Assembly: GCA_017645765.1 (NCBI GenBank)
Contig: JAGCNV010000075.1
Span: 1 to 36,595 of the forward strand
Reading direction: 5' to 3'
DNA from: a bacterium
GTDB taxonomy: Bacteria; UBP6; UBA1177
DNA length: 36,595 nt
Positions within the stretch are counted from its first letter, which is position 1, and each line of letters opens with the position of its first letter. Under the pieces are notes generated by a model. The model was given only the letters and a program-made list of their open reading frames with translations, did not search any database and had not been told where the DNA came from. This document shows, piece after piece, positions 2,582 to 36,595 of this stretch. The position numbers and the translations under genes are program-made.

Positions 2582-5500
2582 ATGAAAAGAATCCTGTTTC
2601 TTACATTAATTTTCATGCTGTTTGCATCGTGCGGCGGCAAAAACGAAACGATCAGCGACAACGACATTCCCGATATTCCTGCAGATGATTCTGACACAGC
2701 TTCTGTTGATGATACGGATAGTGCTCCGGTTGATGACGCGGATTCTCAGCCGGAACCAAGTGACGATGACACTGATACTGAGCCGGTTGATGATACAGAT
2801 TCTCAGCCTGAACCGGATGACGATGATGCAGACACTGAGCCGACTGACGATGCAGATTCTGCGCCTGAACCAAGTGACGATGATGTTGATAGCGATTCAG
2901 CTGATGACTCTGACACAGAACCGGAAGAAAACGATGATGATGCGGACACTGAGCCGGTTGACGATGCAGATTCTGCGCCTGAACCAAGTGACGACGATGT
3001 GGACACTGATCTGACCGATGAGGCGGATTCCCAGCCGGAACCCAGTGATAATGATGTGGACACCGAGCCGACCGACGACGCAGATTCTCAACCCGAGCCA
3101 AGTGATGACGATGCAGACAGCGAGCCGACGGATGATGCTGATTCCCAGCCTGAAGCAAGTGATGATGATGTCGATACAGCTCCGCTCAACGGTGAAACAT
3201 GTGCCGAAGTCGGCGGAACATGGAACGAAGAAGAACAAAAATGCACAAAAATTGTGGAATGCAGCGGTAAACCCGCAAACAGTGAATGGAGCAGTGAACA
3301 CACAAGTTACACAATGGAATATACTGACGGCGGATGGCCCACTGAGATTGATGCAAGATATATTTCTCTATCCAACGGCTACTGCGGCTTCAGCTGCATC
3401 GAAAACTATTTCTGGAACGGCTCGGAATGCCTGAATCCGTGTGTCGGCAATCCATGCCAGGGTTTGGAAAATTCAACAGAAGAATGCATTCCGAAAAATG
3501 TGGAAGAGTATGAATGCAGCTGCGAAAGCAAATATACATGGAACGGCTTGGAATGTGTTGTACCGCTCGGCAGAATTTGCACGAATCAGGACAAGTGCTA
3601 CGACAACTCTAATTTGATAACATGCCCCTCATCGCCACGTGACGATTTCTTCGGTCAGGACGCTCAATATGCAGCTGCCGGCTATTGCAAACCTCAGAGT
3701 TTTACACTTCTGACATTTTCGGATGAAGATGAAGCAGTAGTTTTTGACAACAACACAAAGTTGATGTGGCAGCATACTCCCACAATACAATGGCTGCTTT
3801 GGGGTTCCGCAAAAGGTTACTGTAACTCTCTGACTTATGGCGGATACAGTGACTGGCGTTTACCGAGTCCTATAGAATTCCACACTATATCTGACATCAA
3901 CAAATATGATCCGGCATTTGACACAAACTATTTTCCCAAACTTACCCCGACTACTTCTATTCTTTTTCCCGAAGACGGAATTTTAAGTTCAGCACGTTTC
4001 TGGACATCACAGGAAGACAATAGTGATCCCGCAAAGGCAAAGGCATATTACATACAATACGGTGATTCTTCATGCTTCAAAGAAACAAAAACAGAAAAAA
4101 AATATAATGTAATGTGCGTCCGTGGAAACGAGCTTCCAAAGCCCTCATTTACAACAGAGACCATAAACGGAGATGTCGTTGTAACAGATTCTACTACGAA
4201 ACTCATGTGGCAGAAAACGACTGTAAACAGATCCTGGGGAGGTGCTTTAAACTACTGTGAAAAGTTAAAATACGCCGGTCACATAGACTGGAGACTTCCC
4301 AACAGAAACGAATTGGCTTCTTTGTTAAATTACGACAAATCAAGTGGTCCATATTCCGATTTTCCCGGCATTCCGTCAAAAGGATTTTGGACATCATCTA
4401 CCTATACGAACGGCTATGGTACCGCTTGGTTAGTAAGTTTCGATCTAGATGGCGGCAGTATTGGTATTCAGAGTCTGGGCTATGCCAGTAAATATACATA
4501 TCCTGTGAAATGTGTCAGAAACTCGGATACTGAGCCGGTCAACGGTGAAACATGCGCCGAAGCCGGAGGGACATGGAACGAAGAAGAACAAAAATGCACC
4601 AAAATCGTGGAATGTAGCGGCAAACCCGCAAACAGTGAATGGAGCAGTGAGCACACAAGCTACACAATGGAATATCTTGACCATCAATGGACAGACGAGA
4701 TTGATGCAAAATATATCGATGATTCCAACGGATACTGCGGCTTCAGCTGTACTGAAAACTATTTCTGGAACGGCGAGGAATGCCTGTGGAATCCGTGTGT
4801 CGGCAACCCTTGTCAGGATGTGGAAAATTCAACGGAAGAATGCATTCCGGAAAATGCGGAAGAATATGAATGCATCTGCGAAAACGGATATGTCTGGAAC
4901 GGTTCTGAATGCAGACACCCTGTTCCTTTGGGCAACATCTGCACGGGTCAGACTTTGTGTTATAAAAATCCGGAATGTCCGGCAGAAGGTGAAGACCTTT
5001 TCGGACAGGATGCACAGTACACGAGCAAATGCACGGCACAGAGTTTCAACCTTAAGACGATTTTTAAGCAAACAGTCGTGGTTGACTACAACACAGGCTT
5101 GACTTGGGAACAGTCGCCGTCTAAAAACTCATACACTTGGGATGATGCACCGAACCACTGTGCAGATTTGAACAACTCGAATTACGGGGGAAAAAGCAAC
5201 TGGCGTGTTCCGAATCCTCTGGAATTGCTGACTATCGTTGACAACAGCAGATATAATCCTGCACTGAATTCCAATTTTACAGCATTCAGCGATAAAGTCT
5301 GGACATCGAAAGAATATAAAGGCAATACGGACTATGCTTATGTATTTATACCTTATTCCGGAATGTATTACGGAAAAAATTCGGCTGACTACTCGAAAAC
5401 CTTCCATAAACATGTTCTTTGTGTCAGCGGAGACGAGATGCAGCCTGCGACATCTGATAATTTTACGACTCAGACAATAAACGAAGCAGTCGTAGTCAAA

Positions 5501-5851
5501 GATTCCGCAACAGGTTTGATGTGGCAGAAGGAATATACGACAGGCAACTGGGGGCATGCACTTAAATACTGTGAGGATTCGACTTATGCAGACTATTCCG
5601 ACTGGAGACTTCCCAATAAAAACGAGCTGGCCTCTCTTATAAATTATGAAAAACCTGAAGCCCCTTATTCATATTTTCCTGATATGCCAAACAACACAAG
5701 TAACCGTTTTTGGTCTTCAACTACTCATTCATCTGACGATTCCTATGCTTGGGTCGTGTATTTCAAATATGGGAGTGTGGGCGAAACCACTTCGTACATG
5801 ATCAATAAGAGCAGCGGCAACTATATCAGGTGTGTCCGGAACGCCGATTAG
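2582..5851 (+). CDS. Large lipoprotein with Asp-rich repeats, EGF-like modules and four DUF1566 domains
   Basis: The 1089-residue product starts at ATG 2582 after GGAGGTGAATC. The lipobox is MLFASC. Residues about 30-200 are an acidic repeat of DDAD-(S/T)-(Q/E)PEPSDDD type. Two copies follow of a block made of a Cys-rich/EGF-like segment (NGETCAE..GGTWNEEEQKC, then NPCVGNPCQ) and two DUF1566 domains. Four DUF1566 units are visible by the recurring series KLMWQ or GLTWEQ, then DWRLP or NWRVP, then FW(T/S)S or VWTS, then a terminal VxCVRG/N. DUF1566 is frequent in secreted proteins and relates to the C-type-lectin-like fold family; binding partners are unknown. The two halves are similar at DNA level (3188-3552 versus 4541-4911), indicating internal duplication. 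Confidence 0.85.
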   Translation: MKRILFLTLIFMLFASCGGKNETISDNDIPDIPADDSDTASVDDTDSAPVDDADSQPEPSDDDTDTEPVDDTDSQPEPDDDDADTEPTDDADSAPEPSDDDVDSDSADDSDTEPEENDDDADTEPVDDADSAPEPSDDDVDTDLTDEADSQPEPSDNDVDTEPTDDADSQPEPSDDDADSEPTDDADSQPEASDDDVDTAPLNGETCAEVGGTWNEEEQKCTKIVECSGKPANSEWSSEHTSYTMEYTDGGWPTEIDARYISLSNGYCGFSCIENYFWNGSECLNPCVGNPCQGLENSTEECIPKNVEEYECSCESKYTWNGLECVVPLGRICTNQDKCYDNSNLITCPSSPRDDFFGQDAQYAAAGYCKPQSFTLLTFSDEDEAVVFDNNTKLMWQHTPTIQWLLWGSAKGYCNSLTYGGYSDWRLPSPIEFHTISDINKYDPAFDTNYFPKLTPTTSILFPEDGILSSARFWTSQEDNSDPAKAKAYYIQYGDSSCFKETKTEKKYNVMCVRGNELPKPSFTTETINGDVVVTDSTTKLMWQKTTVNRSWGGALNYCEKLKYAGHIDWRLPNRNELASLLNYDKSSGPYSDFPGIPSKGFWTSSTYTNGYGTAWLVSFDLDGGSIGIQSLGYASKYTYPVKCVRNSDTEPVNGETCAEAGGTWNEEEQKCTKIVECSGKPANSEWSSEHTSYTMEYLDHQWTDEIDAKYIDDSNGYCGFSCTENYFWNGEECLWNPCVGNPCQDVENSTEECIPENAEEYECICENGYVWNGSECRHPVPLGNICTGQTLCYKNPECPAEGEDLFGQDAQYTSKCTAQSFNLKTIFKQTVVVDYNTGLTWEQSPSKNSYTWDDAPNHCADLNNSNYGGKSNWRVPNPLELLTIVDNSRYNPALNSNFTAFSDKVWTSKEYKGNTDYAYVFIPYSGMYYGKNSADYSKTFHKHVLCVSGDEMQPATSDNFTTQTINEAVVVKDSATGLMWQKEYTTGNWGHALKYCEDSTYADYSDWRLPNKNELASLINYEKPEAPYSYFPDMPNNTSNRFWSSTTHSSDDSYAWVVYFKYGSVGETTSYMINKSSGNYIRCVRNAD
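2680..3180 (+). repeat. Acidic coding repeat (DDADSxPEPSDDD units)
   Basis: Degenerate in-frame repeats built mainly from GAT/GAC, GAA, CCG and CAG/GAG codons encode units such as DDADSQPEPSDDD. They form a flexible spacer between the lipid anchor and the folded modules. A 66-bp piece at 2888-2953 closely matches 1897-1962 in the preceding lipoprotein gene. Repeat number is likely to vary between strains. Confidence 0.75.
3188..4911 (+). repeat. Internal duplication: copies at 3188-3552 and 4541-4911
   Basis: Both copies encode NGETCAE(V/A)GGTWNEEEQKC, the CSGKPANSEWSSEHTSYTME segment, NGYCGFSC, ENYFWNG, and an EGF-like module (ENSTEECIP..EEYEC). DNA identity is high over the first 150 bp and falls after that. 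Each copy is followed by a pair of DUF1566 domains, so the duplicated unit is about 1.35 kb. Confidence 0.8.
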
Positions 5852-25471: not shown

Positions 25472-26896
25472 TCATTTTATCGTCACATATTTTTGTTTAC
25501 TGCTGTTAGGTTTGTCGGGAATCGTCATTGCTATCATGCCGCTCTCAAGCAGCTGTTTTAGATATTTTGATGTTGATTTTCTTTCCTTGAATCCAAGATA
25601 TTCGGAAATTTCTTTGATGCTTTTCGGATTAATACAGAAATCGAGAATCTTCTGCTTTATCCCGTCAGACTTCAAACTGCCGGAAATTTGATCTTCGACT
25701 TGGGTATCGACTTGGGTATCAACTTGGGTAGCGCTACCCAAGTCCAGTTTGTAGAAAGGGATTGTGACAACAATTGAATTTTCTCTGAAATCAAAAGCAT
25801 TTTTCCCGTAAATCTCAATGATTTTCGGAACTCCGCGTCCCGATTTTTCACTTATATGCAACTGTAAAAATATTTCTGACAGTTTGGCATTAACAGGAAC
25901 GGATTCTCCTGCGAAAAATCCCTCTACGGTCTGTTCTGGTGGCAATTTCCCTCTGGATAAAATCTCAATGCGGTCATCATAAACGGTGAACATCGGTTCA
26001 TTTCCTTTTACCCACATATTGTGCAGGAATGCGTTGATTATCGCTTCTCGGAACGCATCATTATCAAAAAGCATCACTTCTTTCCGTTCTACTATGCGGT
26101 TCGTCTCGTCTGCCTGCGGGACATTTAACACTTTGCCGTAGTCAAGCACACGGTCAAGAGCCATTAGAAGAGACATGTTTCCGAATTCTCTGACAGCATA
26201 CATAGGAGAGGCCTTTGTTTTTCCTTTAAATAATGAAAACCTTATCGGAATGTGAGGATTGTCAGATAGAAGTTGTGCCAGCATGTTGTATTTGCCGTCA
26301 GTTGTCAGCAATCCAAGATTTTTCAGGAAAGTTTTCTTGTTCAGAGTTATTCCCTTGACGCTATAATAGACAAAAAGTTGTTCGAAGGTGAGTTCCTGAT
26401 ATTCCGATTCGGTGTTTTCCAATGTCGGAACTCCGTTTCTGAGAACGCTGAAAAGCTGGGATTCGTGTTCCGGAAAATTTATCAGATTGACTTTGCTTGA
26501 TCCAATGCGCAGAAACCTTGTTTTGTCGAAAGATGTAGGAACTTTTTTGGCAGTCGGAATAATGAGGATCACGAGTCTTTTTCCCTGAAAAATAGTTTCC
26601 TGAAAGCGTAAAGCGATGTCAGGTTTTGTCTGCCGCGCGAGAAAATGGGTTAGGGGCTCGCTGTTTACATTCCGGCGGTAGTCGAAATTCGTTCCGACCA
26701 CTTTGTGGGTTTTGTCTTCGATTCCCCAAATCATGTAGGAATGTTCCCGCCCTGCGAGAGCAGCGGCATTGGAAAGTGCGGAAACATATTCGCCCAGAAT
26801 TCTTGGTTCAAACCAATTCACCTTGAATTCAAACCATTCTTCTTCATACTTGTGGGCGACCAAGTCTTTGATTAAGGCAGTGATACCGTCGATCAT
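25472..26896 (-). CDS. AlbA_2/Schlafen-type ATP-binding protein with winged-helix C-terminus
   Basis: The 474-residue product begins at ATG 26896 with AGGAGG upstream. Residues about 15-140 form an AlbA_2 (Schlafen AlbA) domain (EWFEFKVNW, SNAAALAGREHSYMIWGI). A GHKL-type ATP-binding domain follows (about 275-370: FREAIINAFLHNMW, then KSGRGVPKIIEIYG). After a TQVDTQVDTQ linker, a winged helix closes the protein (QKILDFCINPKSIKEISEYLGF). Such COG2865-type proteins are putative transcription regulators often found in mobile or defence regions. An inverted repeat GTAAAAATTTAC (26915-26926), upstream of the start, could be an operator. The linker DNA contains tandem and inverted repeats. R1 lies just beyond its 3' end. 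Confidence 0.75.
   Translation of the reverse strand: MIDGITALIKDLVAHKYEEEWFEFKVNWFEPRILGEYVSALSNAAALAGREHSYMIWGIEDKTHKVVGTNFDYRRNVNSEPLTHFLARQTKPDIALRFQETIFQGKRLVILIIPTAKKVPTSFDKTRFLRIGSSKVNLINFPEHESQLFSVLRNGVPTLENTESEYQELTFEQLFVYYSVKGITLNKKTFLKNLGLLTTDGKYNMLAQLLSDNPHIPIRFSLFKGKTKASPMYAVREFGNMSLLMALDRVLDYGKVLNVPQADETNRIVERKEVMLFDNDAFREAIINAFLHNMWVKGNEPMFTVYDDRIEILSRGKLPPEQTVEGFFAGESVPVNAKLSEIFLQLHISEKSGRGVPKIIEIYGKNAFDFRENSIVVTIPFYKLDLGSATQVDTQVDTQVEDQISGSLKSDGIKQKILDFCINPKSIKEISEYLGFKERKSTSKYLKQLLESGMIAMTIPDKPNSSKQKYVTIK
25697..25743. repeat. Three 12-bp direct repeats plus one inverted unit in the linker of the AlbA_2 gene
   Basis: Units of the form RACTTGGGTAKC occur three times in direct order, and a fourth unit (GCTACCCAAGTC) is inverted. 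The last two form a perfect 22-bp palindrome at 25722-25743 with arms ACTTGGGTAGC and GCTACCCAAGT. On the coding strand the units encode the TQVD linker. Length changes would stay in frame. Confidence 0.8.
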
Positions 26897-27072
26897 GAGA
26901 TCCTCCTAAAGTAAGTAAAAATTTACCTTTGTATCTTTGCCAAAACCAAAACAAAAGTATTGTAGTCAATTATTGGAAAAATGCGAGAGAAAAAGATTTA
27001 AAAATCAAGAGCATTAATTAAATTTTCCGCTGAAACACAATCTCTGAAACCTGTGTTTCACTCCAATTTTTT

Positions 27073-27115
27073 ATAACTTAAAATTTTAAAATCATTCAAT
27101 AAAATTAGATAGTTA
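27073..27115 (+). repeat. Dispersed repeat R2 (module B only)
   Basis: AAAATTTTAAAATCATTCAA followed by TAAAATTAGATAGTTA matches module B of R1 and R4. Module A is missing here. It lies in the gap between the AlbA_2-type gene and the 3' end of the DinD-like gene. Confidence 0.65.
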
Positions 27116-27158
27116 CGCTATTGAAATAAGAAAGGGGATTTTTTATAATGCAGAGGTA

Positions 27159-28019
27159 TCATTTTTCTTCGTCAGCCGGTAATTTGCCTGCGTTTTCAGC
27201 CAGTTTTTTGTCTTGGGATGTTGTGCGTCTTTCTAATTTTTTTATATCCTCGGCTGCTGGAAGTTCTTCGGGTTTTATTCCTCTTTCCACGAGCATGGAA
27301 CGGACAGAAGAGTTGTTTTGAACATGCTCTGTCGTGATGTCACCTTCGCCGAACAGATCCTTTTCTTCGACATTGTAATTTGTCATTTCTGTCGCAAGAT
27401 TTTTGGCGGCTATTGTCAGTGTCGGCAGAAAATCAGCAAGAGGGCGGTTTTCCTTTATGCCTAATTTTTCTTTCATTTTTTGTGTCGAGCAGCCGCCGAA
27501 CAAAGCTGTGTCGCCTTTGGAGCGTATTCTGGCGAATCCCAAGTCGTCAACTCCGCGCTGATATATGTTTTGCGACAGCCGTTTTTCTGATTCTTTCAAT
27601 TTTGTGCGGGCCACAGACCGTTCGATATATGAAATTCGTTCCTCGATCAACTCCTGTTTCCGTGTCTGCACTGCGAAATATGCCTGAGCGAAGGCTATTT
27701 CCTCTTTTTTGACATCTCCGTTTTGCGCAATCAGGTAACAGGCGTAGCGAGTGAGCATATAATCTTTGACGGCTCTTTGTGATCCGCTGCCGAGTTGAAC
27801 CATTTTCGTGACCTCACGAAAATGGTCGGGAACCGTTATTCCGGCTGTTTCGCACGAGTCCATTGAACGCTTGACGGCTTTTTCAAAATTTTCCCATCTT
27901 TCATAGCCCAACAAAGGCATAAGCTCGCGTGCATACCAGAATTCGACATCTGAATTCGGAATATTGTTAATGGTTCTGTCAAAATTTTCTTTAATTTTTA
28001 CAATTTGCATTTTATCCAT
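27159..28019 (-). CDS. dinD: DinD-like DNA-damage-inducible protein D
   Basis: The 286-residue product matches DinD/BRO-N-type proteins. It has an N-terminal BRO-like fold (FWYARELMPLLGYERWENFEKAVKRSM), DHFREVTKMVQLGSGSQRAVKDY, YACYLIAQNGD, AFAQAYFAVQTRKQELIE, and the C-terminal half with GDTALFGGCSTQKMKEKLGI and NRPLADFLPTLTIAAKNLATEMT. In E. coli DinD is LexA-regulated and inhibits RecA filaments. No LexA-like box was recognised upstream, and the ribosome binding site is weak; ATG 28010 is an alternative start. It sits in the repeat-bounded accessory block, as is common for DinD homologues outside enterobacteria. Confidence 0.8.
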   Translation of the reverse strand: MDKMQIVKIKENFDRTINNIPNSDVEFWYARELMPLLGYERWENFEKAVKRSMDSCETAGITVPDHFREVTKMVQLGSGSQRAVKDYMLTRYACYLIAQNGDVKKEEIAFAQAYFAVQTRKQELIEERISYIERSVARTKLKESEKRLSQNIYQRGVDDLGFARIRSKGDTALFGGCSTQKMKEKLGIKENRPLADFLPTLTIAAKNLATEMTNYNVEEKDLFGEGDITTEHVQNNSSVRSMLVERGIKPEELPAAEDIKKLERRTTSQDKKLAENAGKLPADEEK

Positions 28020-28120
28020 TATCGGTCACATCAAAAAGTTCTTTAGTATTATAATTAGAAAAATATTTTATTCAAGTTTTATAATCCGATATTTTGCAGT
28101 TTTATAATTGTTCCTTATTA

Positions 28121-28160
28121 ACGCACTTCCTCATTCTCAGACTCAACATTGTCTAATATC
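28121..28160 (+). repeat. Dispersed repeat R3 (module A only)
   Basis: ACGCACTTCCTCATTCTCAG followed by ACTCAACATTGTCTAATATC matches module A of R1 and R4. It ends against the stop codon of the ORF6N gene, so the repeat's right half is missing or replaced by coding sequence. Confidence 0.65.
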
Positions 28161-29075
28161 TCACAAATTCCTCATAATTTCTTGAATCCACGATGAATCC
28201 AAGATTTCGAAACCGAAGCATTTTTTGCCTAAATCCTTGAGAGAAGCTCCGATGTGGTAAAGGATTTTATTGTCGATAATCAAAAATCTGTCATGGATCT
28301 TTTCTGTATGGTTCAGCTCAAGCAGCGGATATTGTTCGTTGAATTTTTGGATATCAAGTGACGTGATTTTTGTTTTTGGATAGGTATAAATCCTAACTTT
28401 TACACCGCTTTTCTTCTTTGCGAAGCGTTCCAGAACCGTTAAATCGACATAGTTGTCAATCAGAATAATCTCTTTTTCAGCTTCAGCGATAAATGACTCG
28501 AATTTCGCGTAGGCATCGAAAATCTGCCCTTGGAAGAAGATTCCTCCCTGTTCGTCTTCAATTTTGTATCTGTCCATTCTATCGAAAAGTTCATCGATTT
28601 TTTTGTCGGATTCCAATAGATGGAGTTCTGTGTTGATCTGTCGTTTTTCCATAAAATCCAATCGTTGAAAAACTTGAGCATTTATTTTGAGAAAGCGGCG
28701 CAGAGCGACAAAAACGCGCATTATCTGGATGTTTATTTCGACAGCATTTTTGCTTCTTAACACTGACGACAGCATTGCAACTCCTTGTTCTGTGAAAACA
28801 TACGGCGGACGTCGCAAGCCCATTTTGTCAGAATTGGAAGTCACAAATTGTGACCTCCAAATTTCAAATTCTGCCTTATTTAATTGAAAACAAAAATCTT
28901 CCGGAAACCGCTCGATGTTTCTTTTTACTGCCTGATTCAAAACCTTGGTTTCCACGCCGTAAAGTTCAGCCAGATCGCGGTCTATCATCACATGCTGACC
29001 TCGAATAACCAATATTTTACTTTCAATGTCGAGTTTGGGTTGATTTTCATTGTGAATTATTATCTCGTTTTCCAT
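28161..29075 (-). CDS. ORF6N-domain protein with PLD-like C-terminal region
   Basis: I start at ATG 29075 rather than the TTG two codons upstream. The 304-residue product opens with an ORF6N domain (ILVIRGQHVMIDRDLAELYGV, with VLNQAVKRNIERFPEDFCFQL and PYVFTEQGVAMLSSVL), a DNA-binding module of phage and mobile-element regulators. The C-terminal half (about 185-304) contains EIILIDNYVDLTVLERFAKK and HDRFLIIDNKILYHIGASLKDLG. These resemble half of a phospholipase-D-like fold, although the usual HxK has become HDR, so catalysis is doubtful. This fusion is a known family layout. Its stop codon abuts repeat R3. Confidence 0.75.
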   Translation of the reverse strand: MENEIIIHNENQPKLDIESKILVIRGQHVMIDRDLAELYGVETKVLNQAVKRNIERFPEDFCFQLNKAEFEIWRSQFVTSNSDKMGLRRPPYVFTEQGVAMLSSVLRSKNAVEINIQIMRVFVALRRFLKINAQVFQRLDFMEKRQINTELHLLESDKKIDELFDRMDRYKIEDEQGGIFFQGQIFDAYAKFESFIAEAEKEIILIDNYVDLTVLERFAKKKSGVKVRIYTYPKTKITSLDIQKFNEQYPLLELNHTEKIHDRFLIIDNKILYHIGASLKDLGKKCFGFEILDSSWIQEIMRNL

Positions 29076-29175
29076 GCCCAAAGACCAAAAATAAGTTTTT
29101 CAACATTCTTGTTGTAATTAAATTTGAAAAATTATCAATAAATTTTGATTATAAATTAAATATTTTAGTTTTTTG

Positions 29176-29356: not shown

Positions 29357-31309
29357 ATGTCATCAGTTTTTTCACATTATTCGGGAGAGATAAATTCTTT
29401 GAAAAGAAACATCTTAAAATCATGCCAAGAAACTCTACAAGAAAATATTAGAATTGAGTTGCAAACGTTTCTTGATGACTGGAGAAAAGAAAATAAAAAA
29501 ATCAAAGCTAAAGAATTGTTAGAGGTAGGAAGGGATTTTCTGTTTGATTTTAATTTTGAAGATCAAACTGGAAGATTCGTTTACTGGTATGAGAATTATA
29601 AAGACAATGTGTGTGACCAAATTGATAGTTTTTTTAAAGATTTCAAAGTAGGTTTGCTAGATGGAAGTGTCGATAAAAAAATGATGCATGAAGCCGCGGA
29701 GCTAATACAAGATTATAACGAATTGATACAAGACTCTCAATGCTTTGAAAATTTTAAGAAATTGCTTGAAATAATAGGCGAGGAATTGTATGCGGAATTA
29801 GAAAAAGAATTTTCAAGTCAGATTGATTTTTACAATGTCGAATTTGGTAAACCAACATCCTATGCATACTCTGACGAAAAATTTTTAACATCCAAGCAAA
29901 AGTTTGTAGAAAAACCTGTAAAAATAGATGAAAAATTAAGTGATAAAATACAAAATGTTTTGCAAGAACACTATCATTATGGCTTGAAAATAGATTCTTG
30001 CATTGAAATACAAAAATTTCGTCAATTTTTTAATGCAACAGATGTGCTTCCTGAAGATAATGAAAAATTAAAAAACATTATCCTTTCTGTCGGAGAGCTT
30101 ATAGAAGGCAAAGTTTTCGCAAAGAACGATGAATTAGTTGAAGATCTAAAAAATATTATTAAAAACATTAATGATTTAGGCATGACTGTTGTTTACTATG
30201 AAGCCTTGTTTGAACAATACAGTGAATGGATGGAAGAACATTTTATAACATCTGAAGAAATGCTTAAAGAATTGCTTCAAAAAAACATCAAAGATTATTC
30301 TTTTTCCAAGAATTTTATCTCAATAGGCCCTAAAAAAACACAAAAAGAAGCTGTAATAGATGAAATAAAACATGCGTGGGGTAATCAAAAAATAGAAAGT
30401 GTCGAGGATTTGAATAACAAACTGCCCTATATTCCATTTAATAAAATTCGCACTATAATTTCAGGGAATGATTCCTTTGTTCTTGTTTCTGATGGAAAAT
30501 ACTTCTTTTTGGATAGGTTTGATATTTCCGAAGAAGAGGCTGAAGATATTTTTGAAGTTATAGATTCAATATGTAAAGAAAAAGGGTTCGCTTCCTTTTC
30601 TGATTTGCCTCTTAGTAATATTGAAGAAAAAAACTTTGAGTTACCGCCATTTGCCTTACATAATGCTGTATATAAGAAAATACTATCAGGAAAATATATT
30701 CGGAATAGCAAAATTCTTACAAAAAATAAGCCTGACTTAGATGTGATATTTTTGCTTAAAAAATATATACAAAACAAAAATGATTGTTCTTTTAATGAGA
30801 TTGCGGAGAAAGTCGTAGAACTGACTGGTAGTACTAATCGTCAATATGCTTTCCAAGCCCTGTATGATGAAATGGTTCGCGTCGATAAAAACCGCTTCGT
30901 ATCAAATGATGCCGTTAGTTTTGATACAAATGAAATTGATAAGGTTCTTGCTTCTTTTATCACAAATCATTTTACAGCAATCCGTGATATTACCACTTTT
31001 GCAATGTTCCCTTTGTGCGGACAAAGTTGGAATCATTATTTACTTGAGAGTTATTGTTATAAGTATAGTAAAAAATATAACTTACATCTTCTTAACTTCA
31101 ACGATAAAAATGCTGGAATCATTGCCGAAAAAGATTATGACAAGAATTATAAAGATATGTTAGCATTAGCCCTTGCTAGAATGGATGTTGAACTAAAATC
31201 CGAAACAGCTGGCGCTTATTTGTTTAAAAATGGGTATCTGGCAAAAAGCAAGTATGCTAACTTAGAAAAAATAGTCCAAATGGCAAAGGAATTAAAAGAG
31301 GAACCGTAG
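29357..31309 (+). CDS. Unrecognised 650-residue protein, first gene of the BREX-like operon
   Basis: I start at ATG 29357, preceded by GAGGGTGG; an upstream TTG at 29300 is less likely. The protein is soluble, Glu/Lys-rich, and has no signal peptide or Walker motif. The N-terminal 350 residues look mostly alpha-helical with possible coiled coil. The C-terminal 300 residues contain segments resembling tandem winged-helix domains (RTIISGNDSFVLVSDGKYF ending in FLD, then DVIFLLKKYI and ITNHFTAIRDITTF). That is an impression, not a match. The gene is strikingly AT-rich: bases 29401-29460 hold 16 G/C of 60, compared with 30 of 60 at 10501-10560. It ends 1 nt before the BrxP-like gene, implying cotranscription and a shared role. 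Confidence 0.6.
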   Translation: MSSVFSHYSGEINSLKRNILKSCQETLQENIRIELQTFLDDWRKENKKIKAKELLEVGRDFLFDFNFEDQTGRFVYWYENYKDNVCDQIDSFFKDFKVGLLDGSVDKKMMHEAAELIQDYNELIQDSQCFENFKKLLEIIGEELYAELEKEFSSQIDFYNVEFGKPTSYAYSDEKFLTSKQKFVEKPVKIDEKLSDKIQNVLQEHYHYGLKIDSCIEIQKFRQFFNATDVLPEDNEKLKNIILSVGELIEGKVFAKNDELVEDLKNIIKNINDLGMTVVYYEALFEQYSEWMEEHFITSEEMLKELLQKNIKDYSFSKNFISIGPKKTQKEAVIDEIKHAWGNQKIESVEDLNNKLPYIPFNKIRTIISGNDSFVLVSDGKYFFLDRFDISEEEAEDIFEVIDSICKEKGFASFSDLPLSNIEEKNFELPPFALHNAVYKKILSGKYIRNSKILTKNKPDLDVIFLLKKYIQNKNDCSFNEIAEKVVELTGSTNRQYAFQALYDEMVRVDKNRFVSNDAVSFDTNEIDKVLASFITNHFTAIRDITTFAMFPLCGQSWNHYLLESYCYKYSKKYNLHLLNFNDKNAGIIAEKDYDKNYKDMLALALARMDVELKSETAGAYLFKNGYLAKSKYANLEKIVQMAKELKEEP

Positions 31310-31310
31310 T

Positions 31311-33647
31311 ATGTATTCTTATACTTTCGATTTTAAAACCGGAGGAATTCTGCTAAATTCTACCCCAACTAACTTTTCTAAAGAGCCGAGACCTGTCTAC
31401 GCAAAAGAGATGGACATTTTGGGCTTTGACAAATATTGGAGCTATGAATCTCAGAACGAAACTCCCTATATGTGGGCTGAGTCTAACATTTATTGGTATA
31501 AAGGATCGCAAATTGCAAAAACAAAGGGTGGCGATCTATACACCAGGCCAGAACTGCAGCCAGTTCGAGATGAAAACGGAGATATAGTTTTTGGTTCAAC
31601 TTCAGGATATGTTTTAGAACCTATCGATATTGAAAGGATGTGTGCTCTTAACGAAGATCTCCTCTCTGTCATTGAGGATTCGACAGTAAAAAAGATCGTC
31701 AAGGAATACGAAAAGTTTCGAGATAAGCTTGATATCTTTCACGTGGCATTTTCAGGAGGAAAAGATAGCGCTGTTTTATTAGATCTTGTGAAGAAGGCGC
31801 TTCCTAGAGACAGCTTTGTAGTGATTTTCGGAGATACCGGAATGGAATTCCCTGATACATATGAAGCAGTCAAACATACGAAAAAGGAATGTGAGGATGA
31901 CGAAACCCCCTTCTATGTTTCTCAATCACATTTTGATCCGAAGGATTCTTGGAAGCTGTTTGGACCACCTGCAAGAGTTTTGCGTTGGTGTTGTAGCGTC
32001 CATAAAAGCACTCCTCAAACGCTGAAAATGCGTGAGATTACAGGAAAAGACAATTATATTGGCTTGGATTTCGTCGGAGTTCGTGCACATGAAAGTATTG
32101 CTAGAAGCAGATACGAATACGAGAATTTCGGGAAAAAGCAGCGTGGCCAATATAGTTTCAATCCGATTTTAGAATGGACTTCAGCAGAAATATGGCTTTA
32201 TATTTTCTACAACCATCTCTATATCAACGAGACATATAAAAAGGGAAACTCGCGGGCTGGCTGTTTGTTTTGTCCAATGGGCGGCGGCGCCAGTGACTTT
32301 TTCCGGAGAAATGCCTATACAGAAGAGGTCGATACATATATAGGTTATGTAAAGGACTCTTATTCTTCTTCTGATCCTCACAAAGCGGATTCGTATGTCA
32401 TGAATGGCGGATGGGGTGCAAGAAACAACGGAAGGGATTTGAAAAACAATAAGTTTAGATGCATCGAAAACAGCACAAAAGGATATATAACTATTACCGC
32501 TATTGAACCTTCCACAGACTGGAAAGAGTGGATGAAAACGCTCGGGATATTAACGGAGATAGATACGGGGTATTCTGTAAGATTCGAAGACCAGGACATA
32601 GCTTTTGATTATAGGCCAACGAATAATGGCTATATAGTATCTATACCTGATCGGATTACAATCGAAAATCCAAAATTTATCAGGCTATTTAAACAGGTTT
32701 TTAGAAAAGCAGTTTACTGTTCGGCGTGTCGAGTTTGTGAAACAAATTGCCGGAACGGCTGCATAAAGTTTATGGATGGTAAAGTCAGCATAACGAACTG
32801 CGTTCATTGCTACCAATGTCATGCAATAGATAGCGGCTGTTTGTTATTTCATTCATTAAGGCATCCACAAGGAGGAGGAAATGGAATGAAGAGTTTGAAT
32901 TCATTTGCAGATCATGCGCCTAAACGTGACTGGCTTGTCTCGTTTTTTGAGCTTAAAGAAGATTTCTTTACAGAGCATACTCTCGGGCCCATGATGTACG
33001 ACATGTTTAGAAGGTTTTTGAGAGATGCCGGTCTGAATGAAAAAAACCATTTCACTGCGTTTGCCCAGCTAATCGACGATATTGGGTGGGAAACAGATAC
33101 TGCTTTAGGGTTGATGCTAGTCAATCTGGCAATGGATAATCCACAGATTGCTTGGTACATCACAAACATGGATATCGGGTATTTCTATGAGAGAAGTCAG
33201 ATTGAGGATATGCTTGTTGCTTTGGACGTAAAACCTAAGGATGCAAAATCCATCACGAAGGCTTTTAAGAGGATTGTTGAAACACCATTTGGTACGACCC
33301 TAAATTTTGGGTATGTTACTGATGACGACGATATGGTTCGTACAAAGTGTTCCATTAGTGATAACCGCGTCGTTCTTTATGCTCTTTATAAATTTGCTGA
33401 AAAATGCAATCTGGCCAAAGAGTTTAGTGTTTCTTATCTTAGAAATGAAACCATAGAAAGGGATGGCATCAGCCCCATTCGCATATTTGGACTATATGAT
33501 GAGGAGGAATTGAAGTCGATTCTTCTTGGTCTTTCATCAGCTTATCCTGAGTTCATCAACGCAACATTTACTAATGATCTTCAAACAATAACGCTCAGGG
33601 ATAAAACCAGCGAGGATGTATTGAATCTGTTCAAGGAGGAACTGTGA
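31311..33647 (+). CDS. brxP: BrxP-like PAPS-reductase-family protein with ferredoxin and DUF4007 domains
   Basis: The 778-residue protein has a PAPS-reductase/ATP-pyrophosphatase domain with the PP-loop S148-GGKDS, FGDTGMEFPDTY, WCCSVHK and a GCLFCPMGG cysteine motif. A ferredoxin-like segment follows: C470-x2-C-x2-C-x3-C, then C497-x2-C-x2-C, suggesting iron-sulfur clusters. From about residue 525 a DUF4007 domain begins (FADHAPKRDWLVSFFELKEDF, FLRDAGL, IGWETDTALGLMLVNLA). A PAPS-reductase-family protein is the hallmark of type 4 BREX, where it is called BrxP; DndC of phosphorothioation systems is a cousin. Spacing of 1 nt on both sides and AAGGAGGA before the next start indicate one operon. 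Confidence 0.75.
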   Translation: MYSYTFDFKTGGILLNSTPTNFSKEPRPVYAKEMDILGFDKYWSYESQNETPYMWAESNIYWYKGSQIAKTKGGDLYTRPELQPVRDENGDIVFGSTSGYVLEPIDIERMCALNEDLLSVIEDSTVKKIVKEYEKFRDKLDIFHVAFSGGKDSAVLLDLVKKALPRDSFVVIFGDTGMEFPDTYEAVKHTKKECEDDETPFYVSQSHFDPKDSWKLFGPPARVLRWCCSVHKSTPQTLKMREITGKDNYIGLDFVGVRAHESIARSRYEYENFGKKQRGQYSFNPILEWTSAEIWLYIFYNHLYINETYKKGNSRAGCLFCPMGGGASDFFRRNAYTEEVDTYIGYVKDSYSSSDPHKADSYVMNGGWGARNNGRDLKNNKFRCIENSTKGYITITAIEPSTDWKEWMKTLGILTEIDTGYSVRFEDQDIAFDYRPTNNGYIVSIPDRITIENPKFIRLFKQVFRKAVYCSACRVCETNCRNGCIKFMDGKVSITNCVHCYQCHAIDSGCLLFHSLRHPQGGGNGMKSLNSFADHAPKRDWLVSFFELKEDFFTEHTLGPMMYDMFRRFLRDAGLNEKNHFTAFAQLIDDIGWETDTALGLMLVNLAMDNPQIAWYITNMDIGYFYERSQIEDMLVALDVKPKDAKSITKAFKRIVETPFGTTLNFGYVTDDDDMVRTKCSISDNRVVLYALYKFAEKCNLAKEFSVSYLRNETIERDGISPIRIFGLYDEEELKSILLGLSSAYPEFINATFTNDLQTITLRDKTSEDVLNLFKEEL

Positions 33648-33648
33648 G

Positions 33649-36455
33649 ATGGCGATACAGAACTTAAAATACTGCGAGTACTTTGATGTCAATGAGAAGT
33701 ATTTCCCGTGCATTGACGAGTCAGCAATCAATAGCGGAGCTTCATGGGATGATACTTATCCTCATACCACTTTTATTGATTTACTGAATCTGACCGAAAA
33801 GATGTTGGCTGGAAATACCAATCGTTCCATCTGGATCCATGGTGCCTATGGTACCGGTAAATCAAAGTGTGCATACACACTCAAAAAAATCCTTGAAGTA
33901 CCTGAAGATGAAGTCAAGGCATACTGGGACAAATTCGAGTCTCTTAAAAAGAATCCCGCTCTTCTGGCCAAGCTTCTTGGACATAAAACTCAAGGGATCG
34001 TCACGGCATATCGATATGCTTCAGGAAGCATTACTACACCTCGGCAGCTTTTCTTTGCTGTTCAGGAGAGTGTAAAAAAAGCCTTAGATGCTCATAATGT
34101 TGCTTACAAAGGGGAAAAGTCATTAAAGGATAGTGTAATTGCATGGCTGGAGGATCCCATACATAACCAGTTCATGAATGCACTTCTTCAGAAGCCAAAG
34201 TGGATCTCCACCTTCTCACAGTCTACGGCAGACGAGATCATCAATACGCTAAAGAAAAGCGATAATGTTTCTTCTTTGATGGATGATATCTTTGCTCTTG
34301 CTGCTCAGGAAGGTATAACAGCGCTCGACCTAACTGCAGATTCTCTTAGAAACTGGCTTGTCGATATCATCGACAGAAACAATATCAAGCTCGTTCTTAT
34401 TTGGGACGAGTTTAGTGACTATTTCCGCCAGAACAGTACATCTTTGGGTGAATTCCAGAAGATTGTTTCAATCTGTCAGGAGAAGCCTTTTTATTTCATT
34501 ATAGTTACGCATCCGTTGTCCTCTCTTGCAAAGAGTTATGACAGCAGCGACAAAACAAACCCATGGTCAGTAGTTCAGCAGCGCTTTGATAAGGTTGAGA
34601 TAACGCTGCCAGACAACATTGCATTTGACTTGATAGGTCATGCCTTTAATGTGAAACCTGCAGCAAAGGCAAGCTGGGAACAGATGACTGGGGACTTAAA
34701 TTCATCAGTTAATAGTGCCCGTGCGGCTGTTACAAAAGCAGCAAATATCAAGAGTGAAAATGTGATGCGGGACATTTTGCCCATTCACCCAATAGCCGCG
34801 CTTGTCCTTAAAAACATCGCCTCTGCATTCCAATCTAACCAACGAAGTATGTTTGATTTCATTAAGACGCCTAAAGATATGGATGTTAAGGCTTTTCAGT
34901 GGTTCATTCAAAACACAAGCCCTCTTTCAGATCGGCCGTTCTTAACGGTAGATATGTTATGGGATTTCTTTTATGAGAAGGGAAAAGACTACCTATCCTC
35001 TGATATAAAACTGATCCTGGACACCTTCCCGCAGCAAACACAGCTAAATGAAAACGAGAAAACGGTTCTCAAGACTGTGCTTATTATGCAGTCGATTGAC
35101 CAACGACTGGGCGGTTCTTTATCTATTTTGAAACCTACTGATCAGAATCTAAGCTATGCTTTCGAGGGCGATGCTTCTGAACTGGAATCATCTTGCAAAA
35201 ATATAGCAAAGGCTTTGGTAAAGAAAGGCGTTCTCATCGAGAATCCCATCGCCGACGGGAAAAAAGTTTATTCGGCTGCTGTTCTCGCTGGGGATGGAGC
35301 GAAAATTGACGCCTTTAAGAAGGACATTAGAGAAAAGCAAGGGACTACCGCAAAATTAGTCTCCGAAGCTCCTGCAGTAGCAACTGCTCTTAATTTGGCA
35401 CCTGCTCTTAAGTTGCGGTATGCGATACATGACGACATAGATAGTGGGAAGCTCCCGGTAGTTACTATTTCAGATTTTAAAAAGACAATGGATAACCTGA
35501 AATCTAAGGATCAGGACTGGCATTTCTATGCTGTTTTAGCACTTGCAAAGACAGAAGAAGAGGCTCAAACATTCCGGACGTTGATAAAGAATACTGTTAC
35601 AGATCCCACATATAAGAACATTTCCGTAATTGACGCGCTCTCTACTCCTCTTGGATTGGAGGCGTTTGAGCAATACGTCGATTATTCTGCCATGTCCTTA
35701 TATTACAGTGGCAACAATGGACAGCAATCTAAAGAGAATGCAAAGAAAGCTAAAAACGTGTTGGAACGTGACTGGAAAGACCGAATTCACGATGGTCAGT
35801 TCATCGTCTTTACATACGCAAATCAAGATGGCGAAAAGGCAACTGGTGCAGATGCGGTCCAAACCATCATGCAGACTATTGTCTTGAATAGATTCAAGCA
35901 TGTTCAGGACTTCACTAAAGGTCTTTCCGAGTCCCAGCTTAAGCTTATAAATCAAAAGCAGGTTGCGAGATATGGTATAATAGGTGGTGAAATTAAGGGT
36001 GTCATTAAGGGATGTGAAACATCGGTATTAGGAAAGGTGTGGTCGAAAAAAGAGTATTGGAACGACGAAAGCCTTTCCGGAGACCATATTGTAATCATTA
36101 AAAAGGCCATCGATAAGATGATTAAAGATGCTTTTAACTCCAACGGAAAGATTTCTATCGGGGAAATATATGATTGCCTTGAAACCACTTTTGGATTCTC
36201 TGTTTGCAATCTGTCAGCATTTATAACTGGCTTCTTACTGAAGGAGTATAGTTCCGACCCATATCGTTCTATGGATGCTGAGGGACATATGGATGCTATG
36301 ACGCCTGACAAGCTTGCCGAAATGATTAGCAACTACTATGGAAAGAATCCAAAGCCAACTTATATTGTTAATTTGACTGAAGAAGAAAAGGCTTTCTATG
36401 AATTGACCAAAAGCGCATGGAATATCACTCCTAATTCGTGTTCATCCCCCAGCCA
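33649..36455 (+). pseudogene. brxC: BrxC/PglY-like BREX P-loop ATPase, interrupted by an IS element
   Basis: About 935 codons are present before the insertion. Walker A is G65-AYGTGKS72, and Walker B is LVLIWDEFSDYF with D253/E254. HPLSSLAKSYDSS and LPIHPIAALVLKNIASAFQSNQRSMFDF are further family-like ATPase segments. BrxC/PglY proteins are large (often about 1200 residues) and essential for BREX defence. The frame is native through AWNITPNSCSSPS and then enters IS DNA, ending at a stop at 36535-36537, so the C-terminus is lost or lies beyond the element. Position directly after a BrxP-like gene agrees with type 4 BREX order (brxP, brxC, pglZ, brxL). The later genes would lie outside this window. 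Confidence 0.7.
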
Positions 36456-36595
36456 TGTTCTGACCCCCAAAGTTTGGACACCCATTAAAGAGAGGTGGAA
36501 AAATGGGAGTAAATCATTATCCTTTGGAGTTGCGTGAGCAGGTTTTGACAGAGTATGAGTTGGGCTTGGGCGGTTATCGGAGATTGGCGAAACGA
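36456..36595 (+). mobile_element. IS3-family insertion sequence, left end (continues beyond the window)
   Basis: TGTTCTGACCCCCAAAGTTT followed by GGACACCC resembles the terminal inverted repeats of IS3-family elements, IS150-like branch (TG at the tip, GACCCC, then an A/T run and GGACA). An orfA start follows 47 nt in. The element is inserted in the sense orientation inside the BrxC-like gene. The right end and target-site duplication are not in the window, so the exact left boundary could shift by a few bases. Confidence 0.7.
36503..36595 (+). CDS. IS3-family transposase OrfA, N-terminal part
   Basis: ATG 36503 follows AGAGGTGG and is open to the window edge (31 codons). The peptide MGVNHYPLELREQVLTEYEL continuing GLGGYRRLAKR is the opening of the OrfA helix-turn-helix domain of IS3-family transposases, which binds the terminal repeats. 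OrfB (DDE catalytic part) would lie beyond the window. Confidence 0.75.
   Translation, partial: MGVNHYPLELREQVLTEYELGLGGYRRLAKR

What the first reader, a model, noticed from the sequence alone, without database searches (positions are those of the whole stretch)
29357..36455. Type 4 BREX-like operon with an additional first gene
A BrxP-like protein followed by a BrxC/PglY-like ATPase matches the described order of type 4 BREX (brxP, brxC, pglZ, brxL). Here a 650-residue unknown protein precedes brxP with a 1-nt gap, so it is probably a component of the same system. To my knowledge such a protein is not part of the core type 4 definition.
Basis: partly seen in the sequence, partly recalled or inferred. 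Interest (0 to 1): 0.68.

Follow-up and report, generated by a model that had tools for sequence, protein, structure and literature searches.

The report
Extra DNA-binding gene in type-4 BREX
The unknown gene in front of this broken phage-defence operon is a real and regular part of a whole branch of type-4 BREX systems; it encodes a fast-changing, probably DNA-binding protein that published descriptions of the system do not mention, and it may decide what the system recognises.

Summary
Window 29357-36455 carries gene A (650 aa), brxP and the first two thirds of brxC, with 1-nt gaps, cut at 36456 by an IS end that recurs at other contig ends. The rest of brxC, pglZ and brxL were not found in this genome's assembly.

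Relatives complete the picture. With gene A as bait, 15 of 15 clear homologues (Clostridia, phage-like contigs) lie directly upstream of brxP; complete loci read A-brxP-brxC-pglZ-brxL, often followed by a cysteine desulfurase. With BrxP as bait, every testable locus of this BrxP clade has gene A; the more distant Methanosphaera-type loci lack it.

Gene A has no Pfam, NCBIfam or PADLOC family. AlphaFold gives its conserved C-terminal 450 residues as six tandem winged helices. Its N-terminus is a changing set of modules: a novel ~110-aa domain, phage-integrase SAM-like, or RNA polymerase alpha-CTD plus sigma-70 region 4. It is the fastest-diverging gene of the operon, and in one close pair divergence jumps at the A/brxP border.

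Best reading: an exchangeable DNA-recognition subunit of phosphorothioate-based BREX, for marking sites or sensing invaders. Membership in the system is well supported; the mechanism is inferred.

The parts
29357..31309 (+). Gene A: additional first gene of the type-4 BREX operon, 650 aa
   Evidence: ORF; no Pfam/NCBIfam/PADLOC family above cut-off; homologues directly upstream of brxP in all relatives tested
29357..29929 (+). Gene A N-terminal variable part (residues 1-191), predicted helical, low confidence; not alignable with the N-termini of relatives
29930..31303 (+). Gene A conserved C-terminal region: array of about six winged helices (window residues ~192-255, 258-323, 329-384, 392-456, 463-516, 524-591) plus C-terminal helices
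   Evidence: AlphaFold models of window protein and of L047 homologue, boundaries mapped; Foldseek to tandem winged helices of SelB and UFL1/DDRGK1
31311..33647 (+). brxP: PAPS-reductase-type PP-loop protein (SGGKDS at residues 148-153) with eight invariant cysteines of ferredoxin type (470-510) and a DUF4007-like C-terminus
   Evidence: PADLOC PDLC02510 E 9.6e-245, Pfam PF01507 E 1.2e-29; invariant residues; hhalign of the C-terminus to DUF4007 proteins 83.7%
33649..36455 (+). brxC (PglY-like ATPase), 5' two thirds only
   Evidence: PADLOC PDLC02485 E 0, profile 4-921 of 1376; intact relatives are 1381-1404 aa
36456..36595 (+). End of an IS element inserted in brxC; contig end
   Evidence: same sequence at other contig ends of the genome

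Best explanation
Gene A is a standing component of one branch of type-4 (phosphorothioate-based) BREX, encoded as the first gene of A-brxP-brxC-pglZ-brxL. Its protein is an elongated nucleic-acid-binding subunit: a conserved C-terminal array of about six winged helices that belongs with the BrxP/BrxC machinery, plus an interchangeable N-terminal set of modules. The likely mechanism is that the array docks on the BrxP/BrxC complex and on DNA, while the N-terminal modules decide which DNA or DNA-protein target is engaged, either the sites to be phosphorothioated or the invading DNA, much as a specificity subunit does in restriction-modification. Shown here: linkage, order, co-inheritance, domain architecture by prediction, rapid divergence. 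Inferred: DNA binding, contact with BrxP/BrxC, role in recognition.
For: (1) Linkage: gene A as bait gave 5 loci in genome contigs, 5 viral contigs, 1 phage record and 4 further genomes in a Clostridia sample; all 15 have brxP immediately downstream. In 391 Clostridia genomes gene A (E<1e-80) and this BrxP clade (E<1e-240) occur in the same six genomes (chance 2e-13, without allowing for kinship). (2) BrxP as bait: all 12 further testable loci with BrxP at least 36% identical to the window's have gene A upstream. (3) Co-inheritance: C-terminal divergence follows BrxP (Spearman 0.84 over 171 pairs), N-terminal divergence does not (0.24); BrxP and C-terminal trees agree in their main groups. (4) Fast evolution: median identities A N-terminus 21%, A C-terminus 25%, PglZ 31, BrxC 36, BrxP 47, BrxL 62; the C-terminus is lowest of the five genes in 95% of pairs. 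L051/L041: BrxP 94%, A C-terminus 61%, A N-terminus 31%; DNA identity steps from 62-77% to 84-89% at the border. (5) Architecture: tandem winged helices (pLDDT mostly 80-92), Foldseek to SelB winged-helix arrays; N-terminal Phage_int_SAM (PF13102 E 1e-11 in L212; PF02899 E 4.7e-6), RNA_pol_A_CTD E 4.8e-27 and Sigma70_r4 E 1e-9 in L160. (6) PT systems are described as needing a PAPS reductase, an ATPase and a DNA-recognising component (PMC12707154).
Against: No biochemical data. Winged helices can bind RNA or protein (SelB, UFL1). BrxP already has a DUF4007-like C-terminus proposed to be the BrxA-like DNA scanner (PMC12839542), so recognition may not need gene A. Type-4 loci of the Methanosphaera type lack it. 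The window protein's own N-terminus has no recognisable module and a poor model. The Foldseek matches have low TM-scores.
Confidence: 0.5

Rival explanations
1. Gene A is the invader sensor or trigger of the system: the fast-changing N-terminus recognises a phage protein, phage transcription complex or DNA end, and relays this through the winged-helix array to PglZ/BrxL; modification sites are set by BrxP itself.
For: Divergence typical of arms-race proteins; N-termini with RNA polymerase alpha-CTD and sigma region 4 domains could report on phage transcription; DUF4007 in BrxP could cover site recognition.
Against: Most modules look like nucleic-acid binders rather than protein sensors; gene A sits next to the modification gene brxP rather than next to pglZ.
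Confidence: 0.27
2. Gene A is the operon's transcriptional regulator, like BrxR in front of some type-1 BREX operons.
For: First gene of the operon; HTH-like, sigma-4 and alpha-CTD domains; distant stand-alone relatives in Clostridia carry Sigma70_r4.
Against: 594-1449 aa, hypervariable and packed against brxP; some loci have a separate WYL-domain protein, the BrxR type, downstream (L149, L212); regulators are not usually the least conserved gene of their operon.
Confidence: 0.1
3. Gene A is only a structural scaffold, the counterpart in this branch of BrxA or BrxB, without a recognition role.
For: Core BREX complexes are thought to include HTH-array (BrxA) and iSTAND (BrxB) parts (PMC12839542); winged helices often mediate protein contacts (SelB, UFL1 hits).
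Against: No BrxA or BrxB model in PADLOC matches; a pure scaffold does not explain interchangeable N-terminal modules or the divergence step at the gene border.
Confidence: 0.1
4. Gene A is an unrelated passenger that happens to precede brxP.
For: Absent from the Methanosphaera-type loci; lower G+C than brxP in the window (30.5 against 40.1%).
Against: 15 of 15 gene-A-bait loci and all testable BrxP-bait loci of the clade keep it, with gaps mostly of 0-5 nt and congruent trees.
Confidence: 0.02

Closest known systems
Type-4 BREX (brxPCZL), phosphorothioate-based
   Same: BrxP, BrxC, and in relatives PglZ (NF033445), BrxL (TIGR02688) and a cysteine desulfurase, in the described order
   Different: One more gene at the front, 594-1449 aa, not among the components listed in PMC12839542 or in the brxPCZL definition of PMC11931770 and PMC12707154
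SspBCD phosphorothioation systems
   Same: BrxP resembles SspD and BrxC resembles SspC; SspB is the DNA-recognising HTH component
   Different: Gene A matches no SspB model; the SspB-like part (DUF4007) is the BrxP C-terminus
HsdS-type specificity subunits of type I restriction-modification
   Same: Works-like comparison only: conserved part shared with the operon, exchangeable variable part, fastest-diverging gene, sharp divergence step at the border
   Different: No sequence or domain relation found; different predicted fold; recognition not demonstrated
BrxA / DUF4007 HTH arrays
   Same: Tandem HTH or winged-helix architecture proposed for DNA scanning
   Different: Gene A has about six winged helices plus N-terminal modules, matches no BrxA model, and coexists with DUF4007
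Tandem winged helices of SelB and UFL1/DDRGK1
   Same: Fold arrangement
   Different: Low TM-scores, no sequence relation, other functions
Stand-alone clostridial proteins L089-L092
   Same: Same C-terminal domain (profile E 1e-36 to 5e-52), some with Sigma70_r4
   Different: Not near BREX genes; 20-28% identity

Membership tests
Type-4 BREX | BrxP with PAPS-reductase domain | tested here: met
   PDLC02510 E 9.6e-245 full length, PF01507 E 1.2e-29
Type-4 BREX | BrxC/PglY ATPase directly after brxP | tested here: met
   PDLC02485 E 0, truncated by an IS in the window, intact in relatives
Type-4 BREX | PglZ and BrxL in the operon | tested here: inconclusive
   Contig ends before them and they were not found in the assembly; present in every complete relative with NF033445 and TIGR02688 matches
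Type-4 BREX | DUF4007 (fused to BrxP or separate) | tested here: inconclusive
   BrxP residues 534-768 match PDLC02511 (E 1.9e-11); hhalign to DUF4007 proteins 83.7% probability; Pfam DUF4007 itself did not score
Type-4 BREX | Cysteine desulfurase near the operon (56% of taxa in PMC12839542) | tested here: inconclusive
   Contig ends in the window; found downstream of brxL in at least 13 relatives
Type-4 BREX | DNA phosphorothioation and phage resistance | not testable with these tools
   needs LC-MS/PT-seq and plaque assays
BrxA/BrxB/SspB (for gene A) | Match to the family's profile | tested here: not met
   No PADLOC model for these matches any of six gene A proteins
HsdS-like specificity subunit (for gene A, works-like) | Changes the recognised or modified DNA sequence | not testable with these tools
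   only indirect: exchangeable N-terminus, fastest divergence

The most novel reading that the evidence does not exclude
Gene A is the site-determining subunit of a phosphorothioate-based BREX branch: a winged-helix rail with swappable DNA-binding heads, so that exchanging heads changes which sequence is sulfur-marked and which DNA is attacked. This would be a modular specificity system built on a plan unrelated to HsdS or to methyltransferase recognition domains.
Probability: 0.35. Interest if true: 0.78.

Novelty: new variant of a known kind. Interest (0 to 1): 0.6.

Why it matters
It is open how phosphorothioate-based BREX, which has no methyltransferase, recognises its sites and tells self from foreign DNA. 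An overlooked gene that is always present in one branch, carries DNA-binding-type modules and changes faster than everything around it is a concrete candidate, and allele swaps would test it directly. Present annotation (Pfam, NCBIfam, PADLOC) leaves this gene out, so heterologous tests with brxPCZL alone from this branch could fail for want of it.

Tried and rejected
Plasmid collection: no gene A homologue. Viral contigs with the single window protein as bait: nothing; alignments worked better. Own family: one weak 42-residue match, not followed. PADLOC BrxP model over the own phylum: only ferredoxin/PAPS-reductase background apart from the window. Weak Pfam and NCBIfam hits of gene A (LAMB1, TRS130, aspartate kinase, KARI_C) are below cut-off and rejected as helical or chance matches. 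PDB sequence search of gene A: nothing. Viral fold library: nothing credible. The PADLOC Cas11 match (E 4e-4, one member of six) is rejected as chance. A recurrent low G+C of gene A was tested as a sign of exchange: only a weak tendency (15 of 22 loci, p 0.04), so not used as an argument. Loci L109/L110 found with BrxP are Ssp-like (SspC/SspD/DUF4007), not type-4 BREX, and were not counted. Loci L145/L155 have a 299-319 aa first gene with only profile-level similarity to the first three winged helices (84%), and L142/L143 a divergent one (90%); they were not counted as gene A.
Full report
What is there. The window is one whole contig (C89 of genome G000). Gene A (29357-31309, 650 aa), brxP (31311-33647) and brxC (33649 onward) are co-oriented with 1-nt gaps. 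BrxP and BrxC are certain from PADLOC models. brxC is cut at 36456 by a sequence (TGTTCTGACCCCCAAAGTTTGGACACCC) that recurs at other contig ends of the same genome, i.e. an IS end that also stopped the assembly. The remaining third of brxC, pglZ and brxL were not found in the assembly, so this copy is either broken and partly lost, or the rest was not assembled.

Origin. The window's phylum is represented by only 28 held genomes, and no other of them has a full BrxP. In the BrxP tree the window falls among clostridial sequences (77% identical to Ruminococcus flavefaciens). The operon was therefore probably acquired from gut Clostridia (inference). The IS shared with other contigs argues against a stray contaminant contig.

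Relatives. Gene A as bait: genome contigs L047-L051, viral contigs L041/L046 and L157-L160, phage-like record MT835511 = L212, and G182, G184, G285, G380 in a sample of 391 Clostridia genomes. All 15 have brxP immediately downstream, and all loci long enough read A-brxP-brxC-pglZ-brxL. In G285 gene A is split over two contigs, and in L050 brxP is interrupted. L048 and L049 are two strains of one species. In the 391-genome sample, gene A and this BrxP clade occur in exactly the same six genomes. BrxP as bait in two further order-level samples gave 12 more testable loci with BrxP at least 36% identical to the window's; all have gene A. At 34-35% BrxP identity (L141, L152, L153) the first gene is a 1064-1108 aa protein related to gene A by profile (E 1e-34 to 1e-42). 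Methanosphaera-type loci (L043, L108; L107 has no gene directly upstream) lack it. Gene A therefore marks one large branch of type-4 BREX, not all of it.

System identity of the relatives. L047 PglZ matches NF033445 BREX_PglZ_4 (E 4.5e-162), L093 BrxL matches TIGR02688, and the downstream enzyme is a NifS/DndA-like cysteine desulfurase, present in at least 13 loci. This agrees with the cysteine desulfurase reported for type-4 BREX in PMC12839542.

What gene A is. No Pfam, NCBIfam or PADLOC family reaches its cut-off for the window protein, and no solved relative appears. The C-terminal 450 residues are shared by all homologues. AlphaFold on the window protein is good for residues 190-500; on the L047 homologue with ten sequences it is good for most of the protein (mean pLDDT 77, C-terminal region mostly 80-92) and shows six successive helix-helix-helix-strand-strand units: tandem winged helices. 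Foldseek returns winged-helix arrays of SelB and UFL1/DDRGK1 (E 1e-4 to 1e-3, low TM-scores). No catalytic domain was recognised.

The N-terminus is modular. Many homologues start with a ~110-aa domain (motif W-x3-E-x3-L ... S-x2-LR ... G-x2-ID-x3-RN-x2-GI). In a sample of 385 Clostridia genomes this was found only in the six gene-A genomes, apart from weak matches to the rest of that profile in three others. Others carry a phage-integrase SAM-like domain (PF13102 E 1e-11 above cut-off in L212; PF02899 E 4.7e-6), or RNA polymerase alpha-CTD plus sigma-70 region 4 (L160, L141). In L087 (G184), L142 and L153 a first-type module is encoded as a separate small ORF next to gene A. The window's own N-terminus (about 190 residues) matches none of these.

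Evolution. Over 171 pairs of operons the median identities are A N-terminus 21%, A C-terminus 25%, PglZ 31%, BrxC 36%, BrxP 47%, BrxL 62%; the gene A C-terminus is the least conserved of the five genes in 95% of pairs. Its divergence tracks BrxP (rho 0.84) and the trees agree in the main groups, so it travels with the operon; N-terminal divergence does not track (rho 0.24). In the closest pair (L051/L041) BrxP is 94% identical and gene A 61% (C) and 31% (N). DNA identity steps from 62-77% to 84-89% at the gene border, and third-codon differences are also higher in gene A (0.58 against 0.35). That points to exchange of gene A alleles, not only faster amino-acid change.

Mechanism. Shown: linkage, order, co-inheritance, predicted architecture, exceptional divergence. 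Inferred: that the winged-helix array binds nucleic acid and the BrxP/BrxC machinery, and that the N-terminal modules choose the target. Published descriptions of PT systems name three activities: PAPS reductase, ATPase and a DNA-recognising component (PMC12707154). In type-4 BREX the third role has been assigned to the DUF4007 part of BrxP (PMC12839542). Gene A is a further candidate, either for site choice or for invader sensing. I favour recognition over sensing about two to one, on the DNA-binding nature of the modules and the position next to brxP.

Novelty. The type-4 section and all text searches of PMC12839542, and the brxPCZL definitions in PMC11931770 and PMC12707154, do not mention such a gene. 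Supplements, and the main paper on type-4 phosphorothioation, could not be read. It is a new component of a known kind of system.

Noticed in passing
L042 around 4165; L050 4682-7807: brxP is interrupted in two loci next to large serine recombinase genes (L042: two recombinases directly before a brxP fragment starting near codon 315; L050: brxP ends at residue 486, recombinase with PF00239/PF07508 1.5 kb further): mobile elements or prophages integrated inside the defence gene.
   Followed up: partly
L089, L090, L091, L092: A family of 411-1110 aa stand-alone clostridial proteins shares gene A's winged-helix domain (profile E 1e-36 to 5e-52), with sigma-70 region 4 in three of them; not near BREX genes and unannotated.
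   Followed up: partly
L149 16094-17001; L212 26937-27920: WYL-domain protein downstream of the cysteine desulfurase in two complete operons; possible BrxR-like regulator at the 3' end of type-4 BREX.
   Followed up: partly
window 25472-29081, - strand: Three genes upstream in the opposite direction: Schlafen AlbA_2/HATPase/Fic-like-C protein, DinD-like Bro-N protein (NF008573, E 1e-106) and an ORF6N protein (PADLOC PDC-S05); looks like a defence island, and Schlafen genes are reported BREX neighbours (PMC12839542).
   Followed up: no
L145 98-1057; L155 12101-13000: Still more divergent type-4 loci have a 299-319 aa first gene with profile-level similarity to the first three winged helices of gene A: perhaps a minimal version.
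   Followed up: partly
window 2582-5851: 1089-aa protein with four Lcl_C domains (PF07603, E 2e-99), unrelated to the finding.
   Followed up: no
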